Made by a program: the position numbers and the translations under genes. Shown here piece after piece: positions 5,912 to 23,803 of a stretch of DNA of 64,000 nt (positions within the stretch are counted from its first letter, which is position 1; each line of letters starts with the position of its first letter). The stretch is from the NCBI GenBank assembly GCA_905250025.1, contig CAJNOJ010000041.1:62001-126000 (forward strand). The letters run 5' to 3'. This DNA is from Adineta ricciae (Eukaryota; Rotifera; Eurotatoria; Adinetida; Adinetidae). The notes under the pieces were generated by a model that worked only from the letters and a program-made list of their open reading frames with translations, did not search any database and was not told the DNA's origin.

Positions 5912-6328
5912 CCCACCAACTTATTTTCAATTGCTCATTGACAAATATGAATAAACAACAAGACAAAAAAAACTGCAAACCGTCGCTTTCAATGGATATA
6001 CAGATTAATCCAATAGAAAATTATCTGTATTGACGATGCGTGACATCTATCGACGACCTATCTTATCGTGTGTATGGCAAAAAATGCACAGATCTTTTGC
6101 TTTTGAAGATTTTCGTTTATACAATAAATAATTCATAAAATGCTGTTTTAACAATTAGACGAGAAAAATGAATAAAAGGCGAAATTACCAATAGGAAAAA
6201 TTACGAAAAGTCTATTTCTGTTTTGATTTTGATTTAGAAGAAAAGACGAAGAGTATTTGCTTAAATCACAGGCTCGGTTGTTTTCTCTTGATACTAATGA
6301 TGATTTACATTTGAATATTGAAAATTAT
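5912..6328. other. Intergenic, Sds3-like 5' side and SNX 3' side
   Basis: About 420 AT-rich bases lie between the start of the second Sds3-like gene and the stop of the sorting nexin gene. Minus-strand polyadenylation hexamers are likely here. I see no further gene. Confidence 0.5.
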
Positions 6329-8191
6329 CTATGCGAGAGTTTCCGATTGTTGAATGAAACTCTTGATGGTTTGAATCTGAGCCTAAATGAAAAGCATTTC
6401 TTCAAAAAACTGTTGAGATTCGCAAGGAAAACTTACTTTCGTGTGTTTGACTTGCAATTCAGTGAATTCAATCAGATTCTTTCGGAACATTTGTACCCGA
6501 CGTGTTTTAAAATCGTTTAATTCTAAACAGAATTTCGAATATTTCCATATAAAATAGACACTGAAAGAAAATAAATCACCTTCTTTTGCTTTGCCCGAAA
6601 TTGTTTCGAATTTTGTTTTGATATGTTGTTGAGTTGTTTCTGCTTGTTGAACGTCTTTATTCTTTTGTCGCGCACGATCTAGATTCTTATTCGCCGTTTC
6701 GAAATCAGCTAAACAACGCGATCGACGATACATCAAATCCAATGCAGCCTTCGAATCTCGCATATAGTAACGTAATGTATCGGATAGTTTTAGATCGGTA
6801 TCTGATTGGATACGCGATTCTAATTTCTTTTTACAAAATCAAACAGAATAGAAACATGAAAACTTAGAATGGCATCTTACTCGGGCTTTTTCAAAGAAAT
6901 CCGCTAGGAGAAGAAAGTATCTAGAAGGAAAAAAATCAATAAAAAAAAGATGGGAGGGAGTTTAGACTTACTTAGTTAAATCACTTTTATCCGTTGTTGA
7001 TAGAGTATTCAAACCACTAGATAGTTTAATGTATGTATCGATCATATCTAGAACAAATTGGTCATCAAGGACTGTAAATGGACGAACGGTAGACTCACTT
7101 TTTTGGGTACGAGTTGCTTTGTCAGCAGCAGCTGTTGCTTCTTTGATTTTCGTATTGTACGTTAATAAGAATTGTTTCTGGCGCTCGAAAAATTCATCAG
7201 TTTCCTAAAGAAATGATTATTAATCTTCTTGAGCAGCTTCATTTGATATGCAAACCTTTTGATTTGCAAGAAGAACTTCATCCGCTGTTTTGGTTAATGT
7301 TTTGAAGAAGCCAGTGATTTGTTCTTTAGCATTTTTACCTCGAACACTCAACTAAACATAGCATGAAAAGATTGTCGATATGCATTTTGGAGAAATCTTT
7401 ACATCTTCTTTGTATTCGAGAAATACACGAAAATTATTATCATTACGAAAAATGGGATGTGCTGCGAGTCGTTGTAGGAAAACTTCATGCATTGAAACGG
7501 TTTTTTTAAACATAGCCAAATATTCGCTAAAAGGAGGCAATAAAGACAATCGTGAAGTGATAGAAGATCTCAACGCACGCTTCGAGTTCCTGTTTCATTT
7601 TCTCGTATTCTTCTCGCGTTAATGAACCTTCACTGTCACTTAGTTTTTGTAATTTTGCACGAGATGAATCGAAATCCGGACGAGGTGGAACTGGTGGAAT
7701 CTAAATTTAAGCATCAGCTTCATTTTCAGAGCAAAACTAACGACGAAAGAGGAAAACGTACAATTAAGCCAGCATATTCTTCGTTTTCGTTGTAACGATC
7801 ATGCAACCAAATGAATTCTTCGTGTTGTCGTGTCACACTAAATTCCGATTCTTGAAAAATCGATAGTTTCGACTATGAAAAACAAAAGAAAGTCCTATTT
7901 TCCAAACAAATTGTCATTCACAATGGATGTACCTTTGTATGCACAGTAAATTTCACTTTTTCTTTTTCACTAAGCGCATCCGATATATCAATACTAATAT
8001 CACTTTCATTCAGGTTCACCGTATCACTATGTTGTTGCTAAAGATAATTTTCAATGCAGCTCTTGCTGTGGTAATTTGCTTTGCATCTTACCTTTCCATC
8101 ATTAATATCCACATTATGCTCAGCTGTCTTTAAAAAAGAAACAAAATTATCGAAAATCGTTTTCATTACATTTCGTATAACATACAAGCAT
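6329..8191 (-). CDS. SNX6: Sorting nexin 5/6 (SNX-BAR, retromer-associated)
   Basis: This gene of roughly ten exons encodes a PX domain followed by a BAR domain. SNX5/6 proteins pair with SNX1/2 on endosomes and carry cargo from endosomes to the Golgi. The PX part reads [20 protein letters not shown], then [20 protein letters not shown] and a [18 protein letters not shown] block, all typical of SNX5/6. The BAR end has [37 protein letters not shown] and LQVKHTK, nearly family consensus. The last coding exon (6382-6329) encodes 17 residues after a 54-base intron (6436-6383); another intron is 6579-6523. The start is best placed at 8191, where a tiny exon encodes only Met-Leu before a GTATGT donor. 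That start is the least certain part. SNX5, SNX6 and SNX32 cannot be told apart; invertebrates normally have one gene. Confidence 0.9.
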
Positions 8192-15549: not shown

Positions 15550-16977
15550 TTAAACACCAGCAGATTCATTCGGAACAGTGATCAACTGTTTGCCGGCTTT
15601 TAAATGCGTTTTGAATTGTTCGGGGATTGGATGTTCTTTGTATTCACCATCACCAAATGGAACATTGACTGTCATTTCGGATGATTTCGATGTGATGAAT
15701 TCAGTGTCGAGTGATGTTTTCGATAGATATACATGGCAGCCATCGGTTTTCTCGATTTGAATCGTCGGTACACGATCGATGACTTGGATTTTCATGCTAC
15801 GACAGTTGATGAATTCAACTAATGAGACAACTGATGTAAATTGAAGTCCAACTTTCGTGCATTGATCGAGAACAATGGAATTGACTTTTCCTTCAATTTG
15901 AATCGTACAGTTGGCGCATTTGTAGATGTAAACTGTTTGTTTCATATTTGTTTCAGAAATTTTGAGATCAGCTCGATTGGAAAAGTATTCTACCATCCAT
16001 TTGTTACCTTCTAATGCTAATTTAGGTGAACCTGTAGTTGATGTTGCTGCTGCTGATGACGAAGTGTTCGAACTTGATGCCTGCAGAGACATAATAATTA
16101 GTAGATATGAATGATACGGAAACAAAAAGTACTCACATGACATTTGTTCGATCGTTCGACTGGTTGATCGACTAATTTCTCTCTCAGCTGAGTATTTTTA
16201 TGAAGTTTAAGTTCGTCCGGTACTTTCTTCAAATGCGCTGTTACACCCATGCCCAATGCGTTGATTGAGTTCATTAATTCTGTTCGTGACTGACCGTCAT
16301 CAGCGTGCGTTGTTGATGATAACAAATCAGAAGTCGGTGGAGGCGGGGGAGGTGGGGGTGCGGACGCAGCGCTTGAACCGTGTTGACTGCCATGAGCACC
16401 CCAAGTTAAACCAGTCGTATGATGTTGTTTCACGTATGCATGCAAATCATTCAAAACCTTCATCCAGTCTTTCACCCATTCAACGTGAGTTGGATCTTTT
16501 TCTTTGAACTCTTTCAAAACACGATTAGCATAGAATTGTGCGGCGTCAGACATTTCCTTGATATGTGGAGCAGGCGTAGGCGAAACGAGGATCCACCCCA
16601 GTGCCGGAATACCTTCCGAAATGGCAGAGAGATGATTGAAAAAAGGAGATTTGCGATTCTTGTTCGTATATGCTACATAAGAAGATTTGTAAGAACGAAT
16701 GTTTTGATGATTAATACTTACCGCAAATCGCTTCAATTTCTGTCGATTGCGGTTTAATTAATTCTTGTATCTGTTGATCATTAGTTGGCTTTTTATTTTG
16801 CAAAGCACTTCGCAGAAATTGCTGTTGAGCACTGAATAAACGCGTAACATGATCGATCATAGCCGGCAATTCGCCGCCAAGTTTGCGTGAAGCCGTCGCA
16901 AATGGTGCCAATGTATTTTCCAAGATCGCATTGTAATCTTTCAAAGCAGGTAAATGATCATTCGATTGTGAAGCCAT
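15550..16977 (-). CDS. CAP1: Adenylyl cyclase-associated protein (CAP)
   Basis: Three exons encode an actin-monomer recycling factor that works with cofilin. The first exon (MASQSNDHLPALKDYNAILE) starts the helical-folded N-domain. It is spliced at AIC to AYTNKNRKSPFFNHLSAISE and GIPALGWILV, which is the conserved HFD block. Then come a poly-proline stretch (SAASAPPPPPPPPTSD), a WH2-like linker, and, after the second intron (donor GTGAGT near 16134), the C-terminal beta-solenoid CARP domain: LEGNKWMVEYFSNRADL, VYIYKCANCTIQIEGKVNSI, CHVYLSKTSLDTEFITSKSS, then EHPIPEQFKT. Order, length and motifs are those of animal CAP. Stop at 15550-15552; start at 16977. Confidence 0.95.
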
Positions 16978-17954
16978 CTGTGTCTGAAGTAAATTTATCT
17001 TTCAACGACACACTTGATCAAAAGGACTATTACGTCGACGCGATAACGTTGTTTTCAGCAAGATAATTTCTAGAAATAGAAATATATATGTACATATACA
17101 CAATGTCTAAACCACCGCCCACATGCAAAGAGAGGAGAAAAACAAAAGTACTGTATGGTATAAATATGTGTATCTTCATTGAAAAAAGGAACGCCCACTC
17201 AAAATTGTTGTGGCATTTATCTTATATTTTCTTCTGTCACCGAGACAAAAAACTCCGAACGCAAGGAAAAAAGGCAAGATGAATAAGTGCATAGTCGACA
17301 ACAGTACTCTGGATTGTTGAGATACATATTCATCTTAGAATAACAAGACGAAGGAAATAAGAATACAGATCGTAATCAATAGCACGATGCTTTTCCTTCC
17401 TCCTACCGGTCATTATCTTGACCGTCTTTTCCTCTTCTTCTCCTTCTTCTTCTTCTTTTCTTTTCTCTGCTTATCAGAGATGAAAAAAGAATTGAATGAA
17501 TTGCAAAGGAAAGACGAAAGAAAGAGAAAAACGGAACAGTTATCAATTGGTTATCCAAGTGACTACTCAAATCTTGAGGTCGCTTCTCAATCGTCTGACC
17601 TCTTCGTTTATCGTCATGCCATAGAAATTCCTTGGGGATTTATGAAAAAAACACACTATAGTTACAAGAAAACAATAATTTTTGGCACAATAATTTCTTT
17701 TCTAGACGAGTAAAACTATGATCCTATTCGTTTTATCACCAAAGTAAAGTCGAGTATTTCAATGTTGACGTTTGCTTATCAACTGATATTTTCGCATGTT
17801 TTGCTTTCCTTTCTGCTTCTTCTTGAATGAAATAAACCGAACGCAAGGACAAATCATGGAATAAAGTATGAATGATCAGAGATTATATTTCTCCGTTAAT
17901 TAGAACAACTTTGACGAATTGATTTCGTATTTCTTTGTTTTCTTTCAGTTTTCT
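16978..17954. promoter_or_regulatory. Divergent intergenic region CAP / GalT-like
   Basis: Nearly 1 kb separates divergently transcribed genes and should contain both promoters. A phenylalanine-rich open frame at 17387-17713 is a low-complexity CTT run, not a likely gene. A TTTCTTTCAG acceptor-like site at 17941-17950 may join a leader to the plus-strand gene. Confidence 0.35.
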
Positions 17955-19975
17955 ATGCACATCCTTACCCAAATTATTCATGTATGGATATCACTTCCAT
18001 CAAGAATGATCGTGCAACTTCGACGAGAAGTATCGATATTCTTCCTTCTTCTCACTCTTGGCTTTCTCGTCATTTTGCTCTATCAATTGCATTATACCGT
18101 CGATCCAACCAAACGATTCACATCCTCGAATTTATCGAAAAACCAACATTTTGAAATATTGAACGATGAATATCCATCTGTTCGTATCATAAATCGACAT
18201 TTGATTGAATAATTTTGCTTTGAATTCGTTTAGTCATGGTATCGAAAGTATTGTTTTCGACTCAAACCAACACAAATTTTAGCAGTAGATAAACTGCCGA
18301 AATATTTGAAAACTGCTCGATTATCCAATGATAAAAATTGTCAGTAAGTAATTCAAATGAATGCTTTGTTCGATCGATCTAAGTGCCGTTTACTTTCAGA
18401 CGATTCGTAACGATATTCGACGCTCTATTTCGTTTAGACGAAATTGTTGGCGCACTGAAAGTATCATCAGTTTATTTAGAAAAAATCAATCAGTGGTTAC
18501 ACAATGACGAGTCACTTCTGGAACAAATACGACAGCAGGTAATTAAAACTGAAGTACGAGTACTTTGATAGAATAATTTCAATGAAAAACTCTCGAACTT
18601 GTCAACGATCTCAAATGTATTCTTTTCAAGCGCATCATCAAAGTATACAATCGATATACACACGAAGAAATGTTATACAATTATATGCGTAGTCGTCGAC
18701 CGCAAACTAAGAGCGAAGTCTCCTCGGAAAGCTAGTAGGCATTGTCTGATTGTCTTAGAAATGAATGCTTTTGTTGTATGATATGCATCTGATTACTTCT
18801 CCAGATTCGCTTTCGAGAATCCGAGATTTTATCATGACTTTTACTATTTCTATTTAGTACTTCAAAATTATTGGAAGACAGCAAGAAAAGCTGTGATTTC
18901 TGTGGGAGAAATTATTTGAAGTAAGTTCGACGAAATTAACGCTCATGACCAACTAGTAAACCGCGATTTCTTCGTTAGTTCAACCGCTGAAGATAGTTTC
19001 GGTCGTCTCGAACACCGTCTATCGTATACAGCTGCAAATACCTTCAAATACGATCGCTGGCACACATTGATCGTTTCGCGTAACCATGATACACTGCATT
19101 TAACAGAAGAAGAAATCGCCGATATGTTCGAATTAACCAAAGAATGGTTCGAGAAAGCATACAAAACTGAACCAATATACACTTGTCCGGAAATGATCTG
19201 GGATGCCATGCCTAAAAGTGGCGCGTCACAAATGCATACACATCTTCAAGCTAGTCTAGGATATGAAATTTATTATGGAAATATTGAACGTACAAGGCAA
19301 GGTGCAAGACTATACGGTCAAATGAATGATCTAAGGAATTACTTCTCCGATTATGTTTATATTCATCAAGTGTTGGGTTTAACAATTCCAATCGGACGAG
19401 CACAGATTGTCGTTCATCTGGTGCGTTGCATTGGAATAAGAGAGATAGAGAGAGATTTTCTGATGTTGTTTTTATTTCCAGACACCGATTAAAGATCTTG
19501 AAGTGATGATTATTGACGAAAAGCTTGACCGAGATTTCTACAAAGCTTTACATTTACTTTTTCGAAGTACGGTGAAAGATTGATTGAAAATTAATATGTA
19601 GTAATTCTTCATTTAGCTTTTGTCGATGATCTCAATGAATACAGTTTCAGTTTGGGAATGTATTTACCACCAATGGTAAGACTAAACATCGTGCTCGAAT
19701 GTATTTCAGAATTTCTTTCTTCCTTTTAGAATGAATCAGCTTTAACTAATCATGAAATGCCAGTTGTATGTCGTCTTCTCTTTCGCAATCCTGTGACAAA
19801 TCTACGATCGGATATGAATGGACTTGATCTGTACACGGTAAGTATCGAATTTTCTTATAGGAAAAACGTTTTGTTTCGCTCTTTGCGGCTATTCTAGAGC
19901 TCAGTAATCGGCAAAGATCGTTACATTCTCTATCAACAGTTACAAGACGGTATTAACAAACGTCTAAGATCGTAA
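17955..19975 (+). CDS. Membrane-anchored GalT/HIT-superfamily-like protein
   Basis: A multi-exon gene. The first exon encodes a hydrophobic segment (VSIFFLLLTLGFLVILLYQL), probably a type II signal anchor, so the rest would face the lumen or outside. Further exons carry a CDFC pair (around 18884-18895), DRWHTLIVSR with a histidine, and MPKSGASQMHTHLQASLG. The order Cys-x-x-Cys, His, His-x-His-x-Gln matches the zinc and catalytic layout of galactose-1-phosphate uridylyltransferase and the HIT superfamily. The C-terminal part (MPVVCRLLFRNPVTNLRSDM) ends in ...INKRLRS at 19972. Starts at 17955 or 18006 are both possible, and one early donor is weak (GTTCGT near 18181), so that junction is uncertain. 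Substrate unknown; a nucleotidyl transferase or hydrolase is inferred only from the motif layout. AATAAA hexamers lie at 20196 and 20206. Confidence 0.6.
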
Positions 19976-20251: not shown

Positions 20252-21082
20252 TCAAATATTTCGATAATTACGACGTCGTCCTGGTATAATTCCACTGATC
20301 ACTTCGCCTGGTTTGGATGAATATATTTCAACATCGGCATTTTTCAGTGCACGAGCTAATACAAATGCAAATATTAAACCAAGTAATTCGAAAAGTAGCA
20401 AAATGCTTGCACATGCAGCAACAATCGGTAAATTCTTTTCTAATAAATCAATGATGGTCTTAGGACAGCCTTTAACAGGGTTTTCAAAACATAGTGTTGG
20501 CGGCTTGACATTGTGATTGATGTAATCTTGGATGCCATTTACTCCGCAGCACGTCAGAGACTTCTCAAGATCATGGAAAGCGTCTATGACTACAGTGTCA
20601 TTGTTATCGAGAGCAGTGGTGAAAACTTGCGTTAAACCATCCTTGTATACCGATTCGAGTTTATCTTTGAAAACAATGGCTGTGATAAAGCCAGCTAACT
20701 GAAGAATGACTAGAACGATTAAAATCACAGCATAGGAGTACAGTAAGCATCTGTTGTGACGTAGAGTTCCTTTGAAAAAACAAATATTTTATTCAAAATT
20801 AACCAAATTATTTCTATTTCAATACATACCAAGGCAACCGAGTAAAGATATAAGAACAGCGAACAGTCCGCCACCAATTAGAATAAAGGCTAAAAATCCC
20901 AACGATTGACTTTTGAAGTCGCTCACGTGTGAAAGTTTGGTGAGGACATCGTTAAAATGTGTATCGACCTTGATGTAAATGCCTATGCCACAAATCACTA
21001 GGCCAATCAATAGAAATATTATGTTCAGGAGAAGTAGCATGCCTCGAGAAAAGGCAACTCCGCAAGATAGTTCCCGTGCCAT
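20252..21082 (-). CDS. Tetraspanin
   Basis: Two exons (21082-20830 and 20770-20252) are separated by a 59-base intron. The protein has four transmembrane segments: two in exon 1, with a short first loop between them, then LIVLVILQLAGFITAIVF and a last one near IVAACASILLLFELLGLIFA. The large extracellular loop has the CCG signature (KSLTCCGVNGIQDY) and further cysteines (PTLCF, KGCPK). The join LLGCLG-TLRHN is typical of tetraspanins, which organise membrane microdomains. It is distinct from the tetraspanin at 27327-28250. Confidence 0.92.
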
Positions 21083-21528
21083 TGTCGAGAAATGTATTGT
21101 AGAAACGAAGAAATAGGTAACGACTAAGATGAGAAAAAAGTGTGTAGTTTTTTTATATAAAGCTAATCTTTCGAAAACAGACCGAAGAAACGATAAGAAA
21201 CATGGAGAGAACAAGAAAATTCTAGTTGACAATAACGTCATTAGTCCGTTTTGACGAATTTTTATTTATTTCTAACAATCAGAAAAGATAGGTAAGCGAA
21301 GATAAGAATGATTCAGTATCAGCAATGACAAAACATCCGTAGAAGGTGATGCGAGATCTTCAAGCAGCGTTATCAAAGTCCGTTTATTAATATTCGAAAG
21401 TATTTCTTTTGTTTTCAATAAAAAAAAAGGGAAAATCTATCACGGCGTTAACATAGTTGTTTGCTGAAAATAAATCGCCAAAACTAACTAGCATATTTCT
21501 GTTATCATATAGAAATCTTTTATCATAA
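21083..21528. other. Intergenic, tetraspanin 5' side and malate synthase 3' side
   Basis: About 445 bases with no gene. A TTTATT at 21383-21388 (AATAAA on the minus strand), about 140 bases past the malate synthase stop, is a plausible polyadenylation signal. Confidence 0.5.
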
Positions 21529-23803
21529 TTAGAGTGAACTGCGAATTTCTGCTGTTGTTTTCTGTTGTTTTGCTTTGAATTCGCGTCGTCGACGATGAAG
21601 AATCGGTTCTGTATAACCATTCGGTTGTTGAGCACCATCGAGAACAAGATCGAGCGCAGCTTGAAACGCAATACTGCCATCAAAATCAACTGACATCGGT
21701 CGATAATCAGAACTGTCCGCATTTTGTTGATCAACAATCTTGGCCATTCGTTGAAATGTTTCGACGGTCTGTTGTCTGTTGATTAATCCATGTCGTAACC
21801 AATTAGCAAGTAATTGACTTGAAATACGTAACGTTGCTCGATCTTCCATTAATCCAACATTATCAATGTCGGGTACTTTTGAGCAGCCGATACCTTGATC
21901 AATCCAACGAACAACGTAACCAAGAATACTTTGAGCATTGTTGTCTAATTCTCGTTGAATTTCTTCGGATGTAAGTTTTTTCGTTAAAACTGGAATAGTT
22001 AGTAAATCATCGAGATAATCATTGAGTAACGATGATGAAGCTGCAATATCAGCTTGACGAGCAAAAGCATCCACTTGATGATAATGTAAAGCATGAAGAG
22101 TAGCTGCAGTTGGCGAGGGGACCCATGCACATGTTGCTCCTGCTTTCAGATGAGCGATTTTCTGTTGAATCATTGCTGACATCATGTCAGGCATGGCCCA
22201 CATGCCTTTACCAATTTGTGCTTTGCCTGGTAGACTATGTCTTAAACCGACGTCGACGTTATTTTTCTCATAGGCCGATAGCCACTTCGTGTCTTTCAAT
22301 TGCCCTTTCGGTAGGACTGGACCAGCTTCCATTGATGTATGAATTTCATCGCCAGTTCGATCAAGAAATCCCGTGTTTATGAAAACTAATCGATCTTTTG
22401 CTTCACGAATGCAAGCACTAAGATTCAATGTTGTTCGCCGCTCTTCATCCATGACGCCCATTTTCAAAGTATGCTGCGGCAATTGAAGAAGATCTTCCAC
22501 GCGTGAAAACAATCGCGATGTAAATGCTACTTCTTCTGGACCGTGTTGTTTTGGTTTGACGATATACATCGAACCCGTACGACTATTTTTAATCGTCTGT
22601 GTCGACGTATTTTTAAGATCATGTAAAGCAATTAAACTTGTTATGACGACATCAAGAATACCTTCAGGAATTTCCTGATGATCTTTATCGAGAACTGCAT
22701 TCGTATACAATAGATGACCAACATGACGGATGAAAAGTAAAGATCGGCCAGGTAATGTCAAAGTACTGCCAGTTTTGGACGTATAAACTCGATCAGGATT
22801 TAACTTTCTTGTAATTGTTTCTTTGCCTTTACTAAATCGTGCTTCCAGAGTGCCTTTCATTAATCCCAACCAATTTCGGTATATTTCAACTTTGTCATCA
22901 GCATCCACTGCTGCTACTGAATCTTCACAATCGACAATCGTTGTCAATGCCGATTCAATTATCACATCCTTGACGCCAGCTGGATCGTTTCGGCTACGCG
23001 GCGGATCGATTTGGATTTCAATGTGAAGACCGTGATGAACAAGAAGAATAGCACTGGGCTTATCAGCCTGACCTTGGTAACCAGCAAATTGACCTGATGA
23101 TTGTAATTTAGCAACTGTTCCATTCAAAAGAGTAATCTAATACATATGAATATTGAGATCAAACAAAAAACACAGAACTCTTGCTTACTTTTAATTCTCC
23201 GTTTTCGACGCTATATTTTTGAGCATTAGCATGTGATAAACCGTCGGATAATGGAACAGCTTCATCAAGAAATTTACGCGTGAACGCAATGACTTTATCA
23301 CCACGTTTTTTGTTATATTTCGTTGTTTTCTCACAACCATCCAGTTCTGGTATGGCATCTGTTCCATATAAAGCATCGTAGAGCGAGCCCCAACGAGCAT
23401 TGGCAGCGTTCAATGTAAATCGAGCATTCATCAATGGTACAACTAATTGTGGACCAGCTCGAATTGCAACTTCTTCATCAACATTACTTGTTCTAATTTG
23501 AAAATTGTCAGCACCAGTTCGTGGACACAAATATCCAATGTCATATAGAAATGATTTGTAAGTAGCCACATCAGTGCGCTGGCCTTGATGTGTTCGATGC
23601 CATTGATCGATTTTGGCTTGTAAATCATCGCGTTTCTGTAAAAGAGCACGATTTTCAGGCGCGAAATCATTCACAATTGCTTGTACACCCGCCCAAAAAG
23701 CGAAAGCATTAATGTTTGTACCAGGTACAGCTTCTTGATTGACGAAGTTAAAAAGAACTTTCGAAATGTACAGTCCTCCGACTCGTATACGATCACTTGC
23801 CAT
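21529..23803 (-). CDS. glcB: Malate synthase G (bacterial type), with one intron
   Basis: Two exons, 23803-23189 and 23136-21529, separated by a 52-base GT-AG intron, encode 740 residues (E. coli enzyme: 723). The enzyme condenses glyoxylate with acetyl-CoA to malate. The match to malate synthase G runs end to end: [138 protein letters not shown]. By my alignment Arg342, Glu436, Asp464 and Asp637 correspond to the E. coli catalytic Arg338, Glu427, Asp455 and Asp631. The protein ends RSSL; a terminal SSL could be a weak peroxisomal signal. This isoform is typical of bacteria, while animal malate synthases of the glyoxylate shunt are usually type A, so horizontal origin is likely. The intron and animal neighbours argue against contamination. 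Confidence 0.95.

What the first reader, a model, noticed from the sequence alone, without database searches (positions are those of the whole stretch)
21529..23803. Bacterial-type malate synthase G in an animal genome, with a spliceosomal intron
The sequence shows a full-length malate synthase G, with all catalytic residues by my alignment, interrupted by a 52-base GT-AG intron between GELK and ITLL, and flanked by a tetraspanin and a Tudor gene. Isoform G is a bacterial enzyme; animal glyoxylate-cycle malate synthases are normally type A. The simplest reading is horizontal gain followed by intron gain and domestication. With isocitrate lyase it could let the animal make sugar from fat during starvation or drying. 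The protein ends in SSL, which might send it to peroxisomes.
Basis: partly seen in the sequence, partly recalled or inferred. Interest (0 to 1): 0.8.

Follow-up and report, generated by a model that had tools for sequence, protein, structure and literature searches.

The report
Bacterial malate synthase adopted by animal
An animal genome, probably a rotifer's, carries an old, intact bacterial enzyme gene that has gained an intron, and neighbouring clues suggest it may help turn purine waste into usable carbon rather than fat into sugar.

Summary
On the minus strand, 23803-21529, two exons and a 52-nt GT-AG intron encode a 740-aa malate synthase G (MSG) with its active-site residues kept. A second MSG (70% identical) lies on contig C11 between the same neighbours, with a 52-nt intron at the same place; dN/dS is about 0.13. 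One old bacterial acquisition, intron gain, then block duplication explains this; it is not contamination. The setting fits a bdelloid rotifer, where foreign genes are common.

The proposed glyoxylate-cycle role is weakened: the genome already has a predicted isocitrate lyase-malate synthase A fusion gene. The C11 copy instead lies 101 nt from the only ureidoglycolate lyase (AllA) gene found, and the genome has uricase, HIU hydrolase, a bacterial-type PuuE-UraD fusion and allantoicase. I therefore favour glyoxylate disposal at the end of urate/allantoin breakdown, like yeast Dal3-Dal7. That function is inferred; AllA adjacency is in one copy only and could be chance. The SSL ending is not a consensus peroxisome signal, and the C11 copy lacks it.

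The parts
23189..23803 (-). MSG exon 1 (codons 1-205, starts [10 protein letters not shown])
   Evidence: family
23137..23188 (-). 52-nt GT-AG intron, phase 0; a 52-nt intron lies at the same codon boundary in the C11 ohnologue (19 of 52 positions identical, ungapped)
21529..23136 (-). MSG exon 2 with TIM-barrel and C-terminal domain, stop at the 21529 end; 11-residue tail ending SSL
20252..21265 (-). tetraspanin gene (two exon frames), the neighbour on the 3' side; its counterpart on C11 lies beyond AllA
18383..19894 (+). HIT/GalT-like gene, several exon frames (main frame 84% identical to the C11 counterpart). Name by eye and from a Pfam HIT match of the C11 copy below the cut-off (E 0.021); the window frame itself had no Pfam match
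15550..17001 (-). adenylate cyclase-associated protein (CAP) gene, colinear with C11
27321..28250 (+). second tetraspanin gene, colinear with C11 on the other side of MSG

Best explanation
This is a full-length malate synthase G gained from a bacterium (nearest genome matches are Pseudomonas, donor not resolved) by an ancestor of this animal. It entered a gene-rich region between two tetraspanin genes, gained one short spliceosomal intron, and was then copied with its neighbourhood when the block was duplicated (probably the bdelloid tetraploidisation). Both copies have been kept under purifying selection. The enzyme most likely condenses glyoxylate with acetyl-CoA to malate. Its main glyoxylate source is most likely purine/ureide breakdown: urate (uricase), HIU hydrolase, UraD and PuuE (one fused protein of bacterial type), allantoicase, ureidoglycolate lyase (AllA, gene 101 nt from the C11 MSG, tail to tail), then MSG. 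Shown by sequence: gene, intron site, ohnologue, selection, and presence of the pathway genes. Inferred: splicing, catalytic activity, pathway role, cell compartment, host identity.
For: MSG identity. Animal setting and shared neighbours of the C41 and C11 copies: (frame by frame: CAP 58-80%, HIT/GalT-like up to 84%, tetraspanins 45-73%, MSG exon 1 65% and exon 2 71% identity). Same intron site and length in both copies. dN 0.215, dS 1.65 (NG86, 729 codons; YN00 failed). Pair 100/100 among 80 bacterial rows and E. coli GlcB. AllA: one match found in the genome, over its NCBIfam cut-off, 246 against 230; 62-72% identical in 10 of 10 Pseudomonadaceae genomes tried (64-68% by tblastn for the eight fetched). 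PuuE-UraD fusion of 479 aa (530 against 425 and 198 against 96 bits), best plasmid match 74% over 98% in Rhizobium. Allantoicase 437 bits against 278. Uricase and HIU hydrolase genes 108 nt apart. A predicted ICL-MS A fusion already covers the glyoxylate cycle. Yeast precedent: DAL7 malate synthase disposes of glyoxylate from allantoin breakdown (PMC3646786, passages).
Against: No RNA, protein or activity data. AllA is beside only one of the two MSG copies; no trace was found in the window. The AllA and MSG genes are convergent, not an operon, and 0 of 80 bacterial MSG loci carry AllA or allantoicase in the flank held, so the adjacency may be chance. Isocitrate lyase frames on C181 could also feed MSG. 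Animals also have transaminases for glyoxylate (established knowledge, not searched). Pathway genes lie on several contigs. No eukaryote protein collection was available, so a eukaryotic intermediate donor is not excluded.
Confidence: 0.55

Rival explanations
1. MSG serves general glyoxylate or glycolate detoxification from several sources, with no special link to ureides; AllA adjacency is chance in a region that gathers foreign genes.
For: E. coli GlcB lies in the glycolate (glc) gene group. AllA is absent around the window copy, is convergent with MSG on C11, and is not found in the flanks held of any of 80 bacterial MSG loci.
Against: The only AllA gene found in the genome lies 101 nt from one of only two MSG genes found.
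Confidence: 0.3
2. MSG is the malate synthase of a glyoxylate cycle together with isocitrate lyase, making sugar from fat in starvation or drying.
For: Isocitrate lyase exists in this genome, fused and as further frames on C181. An isocitrate lyase gene is listed among top-ranked genes of Adineta vaga in space (PMC12220480, passages).
Against: Isocitrate lyase and type A malate synthase are already predicted as one fusion protein, with two gene copies. The C181 lyase sits next to a 2-methylcitrate dehydratase gene, hinting at the methylcitrate cycle. Neither MSG copy is near a lyase in the stretches read.
Confidence: 0.22
3. The gene came from another eukaryote (fungus, protist, alga) that had itself taken it from bacteria.
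For: The pair sits on a long stem (0.57 in the quick tree) and the donor is unresolved in the careful tree.
Against: Nothing positive; no eukaryotic MSG could be searched here.
Confidence: 0.15
4. Contamination or a bacterial contig misassembled into the animal genome.
For: Up to 64% identity to bacterial MSG.
Against: Intron, animal neighbours on contigs of 552 and 939 kb, 70% identical ohnologue with the same intron, GC 0.40 where the window as a whole has 0.365.
Confidence: 0.01

Closest known systems
Bacterial malate synthase G (GlcB), TIGR01345; solved examples 5oas and 1d8c (their species, P. aeruginosa and E. coli, are recalled)
   Same: Full length, same active-site residues.
   Different: Lies in an animal genome, one predicted spliceosomal intron, about 36% different from the nearest bacterial protein found.
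Foreign genes of bdelloid rotifers (PMC3499245, PMC5916493, PMC4632278; passages only)
   Same: Bacterial metabolic gene, ohnologous copies, short intron. Purine metabolism heads the foreign-transcript pathway table of PMC3499245 (28 of 58 EC numbers; species Adineta ricciae recalled).
   Different: The word malate is absent from all three main texts; allanto- is absent from the two in which I looked for it (PMC3499245, PMC4632278). Supplements not seen.
Yeast DAL cluster (Dal3 ureidoglycolate lyase, Dal7 malate synthase)
   Same: Ureidoglycolate lyase and malate synthase genes in one cluster; Dal7 removes glyoxylate from allantoin breakdown (PMC3646786, passages).
   Different: Dal7 is type A (recalled), this is type G; here only one MSG copy is linked and the two genes are convergent and of bacterial type.
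Nephromyces urate-to-malate route (PMC6320678, passages)
   Same: Proposes urate to glyoxylate to malate by malate synthase in a eukaryote, with isocitrate lyase not needed.
   Different: Apicomplexan; no ureidoglycolate lyase orthologue found there; here AllA is present.
Animal malate synthases and nematode ICL-MS (PMC1630690, parts 1-2 of 6 and passages)
   Same: Transfer of glyoxylate enzymes into animals is known; the C455 gene has the nematode domain order.
   Different: MSG is another isoform than the malate synthase exons of C455, which match malate_syn_A; malate_syn_A scores only 48 bits on MSG.

Membership tests
Malate synthase G (TIGR01345) | Full-length match over the curated cut-off | tested here: met
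   1113 bits against 989; residues 5-728 to profile 2-720 of 721
Malate synthase G (TIGR01345) | Catalytic and metal residues (E. coli R338 and D631 named in PMC3112382, passages; E272, E427, D455 recalled) | tested here: met
   all five identical in the C41 and C11 copies
Malate synthase G (TIGR01345) | Malate synthase activity | not testable with these tools
   needs expressed protein
Horizontally acquired, domesticated animal gene | Animal neighbours and an intron on the same contig | tested here: met
Horizontally acquired, domesticated animal gene | Nested among bacterial relatives | tested here: inconclusive
   all sampled relatives are bacterial and the pair is 100/100, but its place is unresolved and no eukaryote collection was searched
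Horizontally acquired, domesticated animal gene | Intron removed in mRNA | not testable with these tools
   no RNA data; the shared intron site in the ohnologue is indirect support
Bdelloid rotifer genome | Ohnologous colinear blocks plus near-identical homologous copies | tested here: met
   C41/C11 block; second copies at 92-95% DNA identity over the long stretches of the allantoicase, uricase and ICL-MS regions. Species not named; other taxa not excluded; telomere test uninformative
Peroxisomal PTS1 protein | C-terminal [SAC][KRH][LM] (recalled consensus) | tested here: not met
   SSL in the C41 copy, AQH in the C11 copy; both uricase copies of this genome end SKL
Ureide catabolic partner of AllA | Conserved genetic linkage with AllA | tested here: inconclusive
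   linked on C11, not in the window, not in the flank held of any of 80 bacterial MSG loci

The most novel reading that the evidence does not exclude
An animal has assembled, in large part from bacteria and in separate steps, a complete route that burns its own or dietary purine waste: urate to allantoin to ureidoglycolate to glyoxylate and, by malate synthase G, to malate, so that nitrogen waste returns carbon to central metabolism. The AllA-MSG pair on C11 would be an animal counterpart, reached independently, of the yeast Dal3-Dal7 pairing.
Probability: 0.42. Interest if true: 0.65.

Novelty: new member of a known kind. Interest (0 to 1): 0.45.

Why it matters
Many animals stop purine breakdown at urate, allantoin or urea, and malate synthase G is known as a bacterial isoform (recalled). 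A domesticated MSG whose twin has a ureidoglycolate lyase gene beside it, in a genome that also has a bacterial-type PuuE-UraD fusion, gives a concrete, testable example of how transferred genes can extend an animal pathway step by step. The shared intron and the ohnologues date the gain before the block duplication. It also corrects the simple 'glyoxylate cycle' reading, since the genome has a separate predicted ICL-MS A fusion.

Tried and rejected
Bacterial operon as the source of the AllA-MSG pair: not supported by the bacteria sampled; 0 of 80 MSG loci hold AllA or allantoicase at E up to 1e-5 in the flank held. Of the 80, 58 have about 9 kb on both sides and 68 at least 3 kb.

Pseudomonas as proven donor: not claimed. 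A quick tree of 73 rows put the pair with Pseudomonadales and Mycobacteriales (97, SH-aLRT only; 10 of 80 bacterial rows had been dropped because the translated stretch held a stop). The careful tree with all 80 (one of them, L120, only 397 aa) gave no supported set beyond the pair. The AU test did not reject the pair plus a Pseudomonadaceae core (p 0.309), which is no proof; that core left out 5 of 26 Pseudomonadaceae rows and added a row labelled Pantoea. Among plasmids, exon 2 alone matches Azospirillum and Aminobacter at 65%, as well as Pseudomonas genomes do. A 14-row AllA tree was unresolved with long branches; it even paired the animal row with the long Sinorhizobium row (86/84).

Telomere repeat test for a bdelloid genome: uninformative; the backward control is a rotation of the same repeat.

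Animal-type allantoinase (TIGR03178) in this genome: not completed, so its presence or absence is unknown.

Literature (open library, full text): bdelloid with malate synthase and isocitrate lyase (2 papers); glyoxylate cycle, malate synthase, horizontal, rotifer; bdelloid, horizontal, allantoicase; bdelloid with allantoin; ureidoglycolate lyase, animal, horizontal gene transfer; rotifer with isocitrate lyase; malate synthase G, horizontal gene transfer, eukaryot-. No listed title describes this gene. Most papers listed were not opened; no supplements could be read.

Full report
What is there. The finding's coordinates are exact, with the gene on the minus strand. Exon 1 is 23803-23189, the intron 23188-23137 (52 nt, GT-AG, phase 0), exon 2 23136-21529 with the stop; the spliced protein has 740 residues. 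Read through without splicing, the exon-1 frame ends at 23159. The protein matches NCBIfam malate synthase G over its curated cut-off (1113 against 989 bits). Eleven of the 12 solved sequences it matches are MSG chains, and the best one aligns without a gap across the exon junction. Residues at E. coli positions R338, E272, E427, D455 and D631 are kept in both copies of this genome; R338 and D631 are named as catalytic in PMC3112382 (passages), the rest is recalled. Malate synthase A scores only 48 bits, so this is not the type A enzyme.

Not contamination. The window lies in a 130-Mb genome of 1033 contigs. Neighbours are a CAP gene, a HIT/GalT-like gene (name weak), two tetraspanin genes and, further on, a rhodopsin-family receptor gene. 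The Pfam search of the genome for the malate synthase barrel gave eight matching stretches, which I assign to four genes: the window MSG, a second MSG on contig C11 (939 kb), and two copies of another gene on C455. The C11 MSG stands between counterparts of the same neighbours; frame by frame the identities are CAP 58-80%, HIT/GalT-like up to 84%, tetraspanins 45-73%, MSG exon 1 65% and exon 2 71% (70% overall). Its intron is also 52 nt and falls at the same codon boundary, though only 19 of 52 positions agree without gaps. Over 729 codons dN is 0.215 and dS 1.65 by NG86 (YN00 failed), a ratio near 0.13. So the gene and its intron are older than the duplication of the block, and both copies have been under purifying selection. 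Published bdelloid genomes show such diverged ohnologues and median introns of 55-67 bases (PMC5916493, passages). Other loci here have second copies at 92-95% DNA identity over their long stretches, as expected for separately assembled homologues.

Where it came from. In a careful tree of all 80, E. coli GlcB and the two animal copies, the animal pair is 100/100 but no larger supported set holds it. A quick tree with 70 of the 80 had put it with Pseudomonadales and Mycobacteriales. A tree with the pair held to a Pseudomonadaceae core is not rejected (p 0.309). On plasmids, exon 2 matches Azospirillum and Aminobacter equally well (65%). The source is bacterial as far as sampled; the donor is open, and no eukaryote collection could be searched.

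What it probably does. It exists: contig C455 has two copies (93-95% DNA identity) of a gene with isocitrate lyase exons followed by type A malate synthase exons. The exons join in frame across a predicted 133-nt intron in both copies, and in one copy also across the predicted 53-nt intron before it, which links the lyase to the synthase part; the second copy lacked the acceptor motif I searched for, so there that junction is unchecked. This is the domain order known from nematodes (PMC1630690, parts 1-2). Further lyase frames on C181 stand beside a 2-methylcitrate dehydratase and a urea transporter gene. Hence a glyoxylate cycle would not need MSG.

The C11 copy points elsewhere. 101 nt from its 3' end, tail to tail, is an uninterrupted ureidoglycolate lyase frame (AllA), over its NCBIfam cut-off (246 against 230) and the only match of that family found in the genome. 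It is 62-72% identical to AllA of 10 of 10 Pseudomonadaceae genomes tried (64-68% by tblastn for the eight fetched); of five other genomes tried, one Mesorhizobium has a 44% match and three Mycobacteriales and one Azospirillum have none. The genome also encodes uricase (both copies ending SKL) and HIU hydrolase on the same strand, 108 nt apart where measured; a 479-aa PuuE allantoinase-UraD fusion of bacterial type in two tandem copies, 99.7% identical in DNA, 74% identical to one continuous stretch of a Rhizobium plasmid; and allantoicase as an uninterrupted 342-residue frame in two homologous copies. The GC content differs (PuuE-UraD 0.49, allantoicase 0.43, AllA 0.41, MSG 0.40), and so do the best matches, which suggests that pieces arrived separately. 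Whether allantoicase is native to animals was not settled (52-57% to bacteria; 225 bits to the solved allantoicases). With these genes urate can be taken to glyoxylate, and MSG would make malate of it. In yeast the Dal7 malate synthase does this job in a cluster with Dal3 (PMC3646786, passages), and a similar route was proposed for Nephromyces (PMC6320678, passages).

Limits. AllA lies beside only one MSG copy; no trace is seen in the window, so it was lost there or gained on C11 later. None of 80 bacterial MSG loci has AllA or allantoicase in the flank held, so the pair was not carried over as seen in these bacteria. Chance adjacency is a live rival. Activity, splicing and location are untested. 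The SSL end does not fit the PTS1 consensus (recalled) and is missing in the C11 copy.

Verdict. A real, old, domesticated bacterial MSG in an animal, of a kind already well known from bdelloids; the new part is the possible link to purine waste. PMC3499245 (passages) lists purine metabolism first among foreign-transcript pathways, 28 of 58 enzyme numbers, and glyoxylate metabolism with 7 of 22, so parts of this may already be in its tables.

Noticed in passing
G000 C455 (L011:4760-8310 and L012:4847-8410, minus strand): Two copies, about 18 kb apart, of a predicted isocitrate lyase-malate synthase A fusion gene with many introns, 93-95% identical in DNA, nematode domain order.
   Followed up: partly
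G000 C287 (L130:2326-3765 and 6137-7573, minus strand): Tandem uninterrupted PuuE-UraD fusion frames, 99.7% identical, GC 0.49 in a 0.38 surrounding, 74% to a Rhizobium plasmid: looks like a later bacterial gain.
   Followed up: partly
G000 C181 (L028:1177-5231, minus strand): Isocitrate lyase frames, a 2-methylcitrate dehydratase frame (756 bits) and a urea transporter frame in a row; possible methylcitrate-cycle pair.
   Followed up: partly
G000 C84 (L131:2760-3918) and C110: Uricase gene ending SKL with an HIU hydrolase frame on the same strand just downstream, in both copies (108 nt apart on C84).
   Followed up: partly
window 28250-52240: About 24 kb between the second tetraspanin and the next block shared with the fetched part of C11; that block (52.2-58.7 kb) is inverted relative to C11.
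   Followed up: no
L011:3-3677 and L012:2-3743 (C455, minus strand): Long frames (1225 aa, and 1000 plus 263 aa) downstream of each ICL-MS copy, ankyrin- and helicase-like by eye only, duplicated with it.
   Followed up: no
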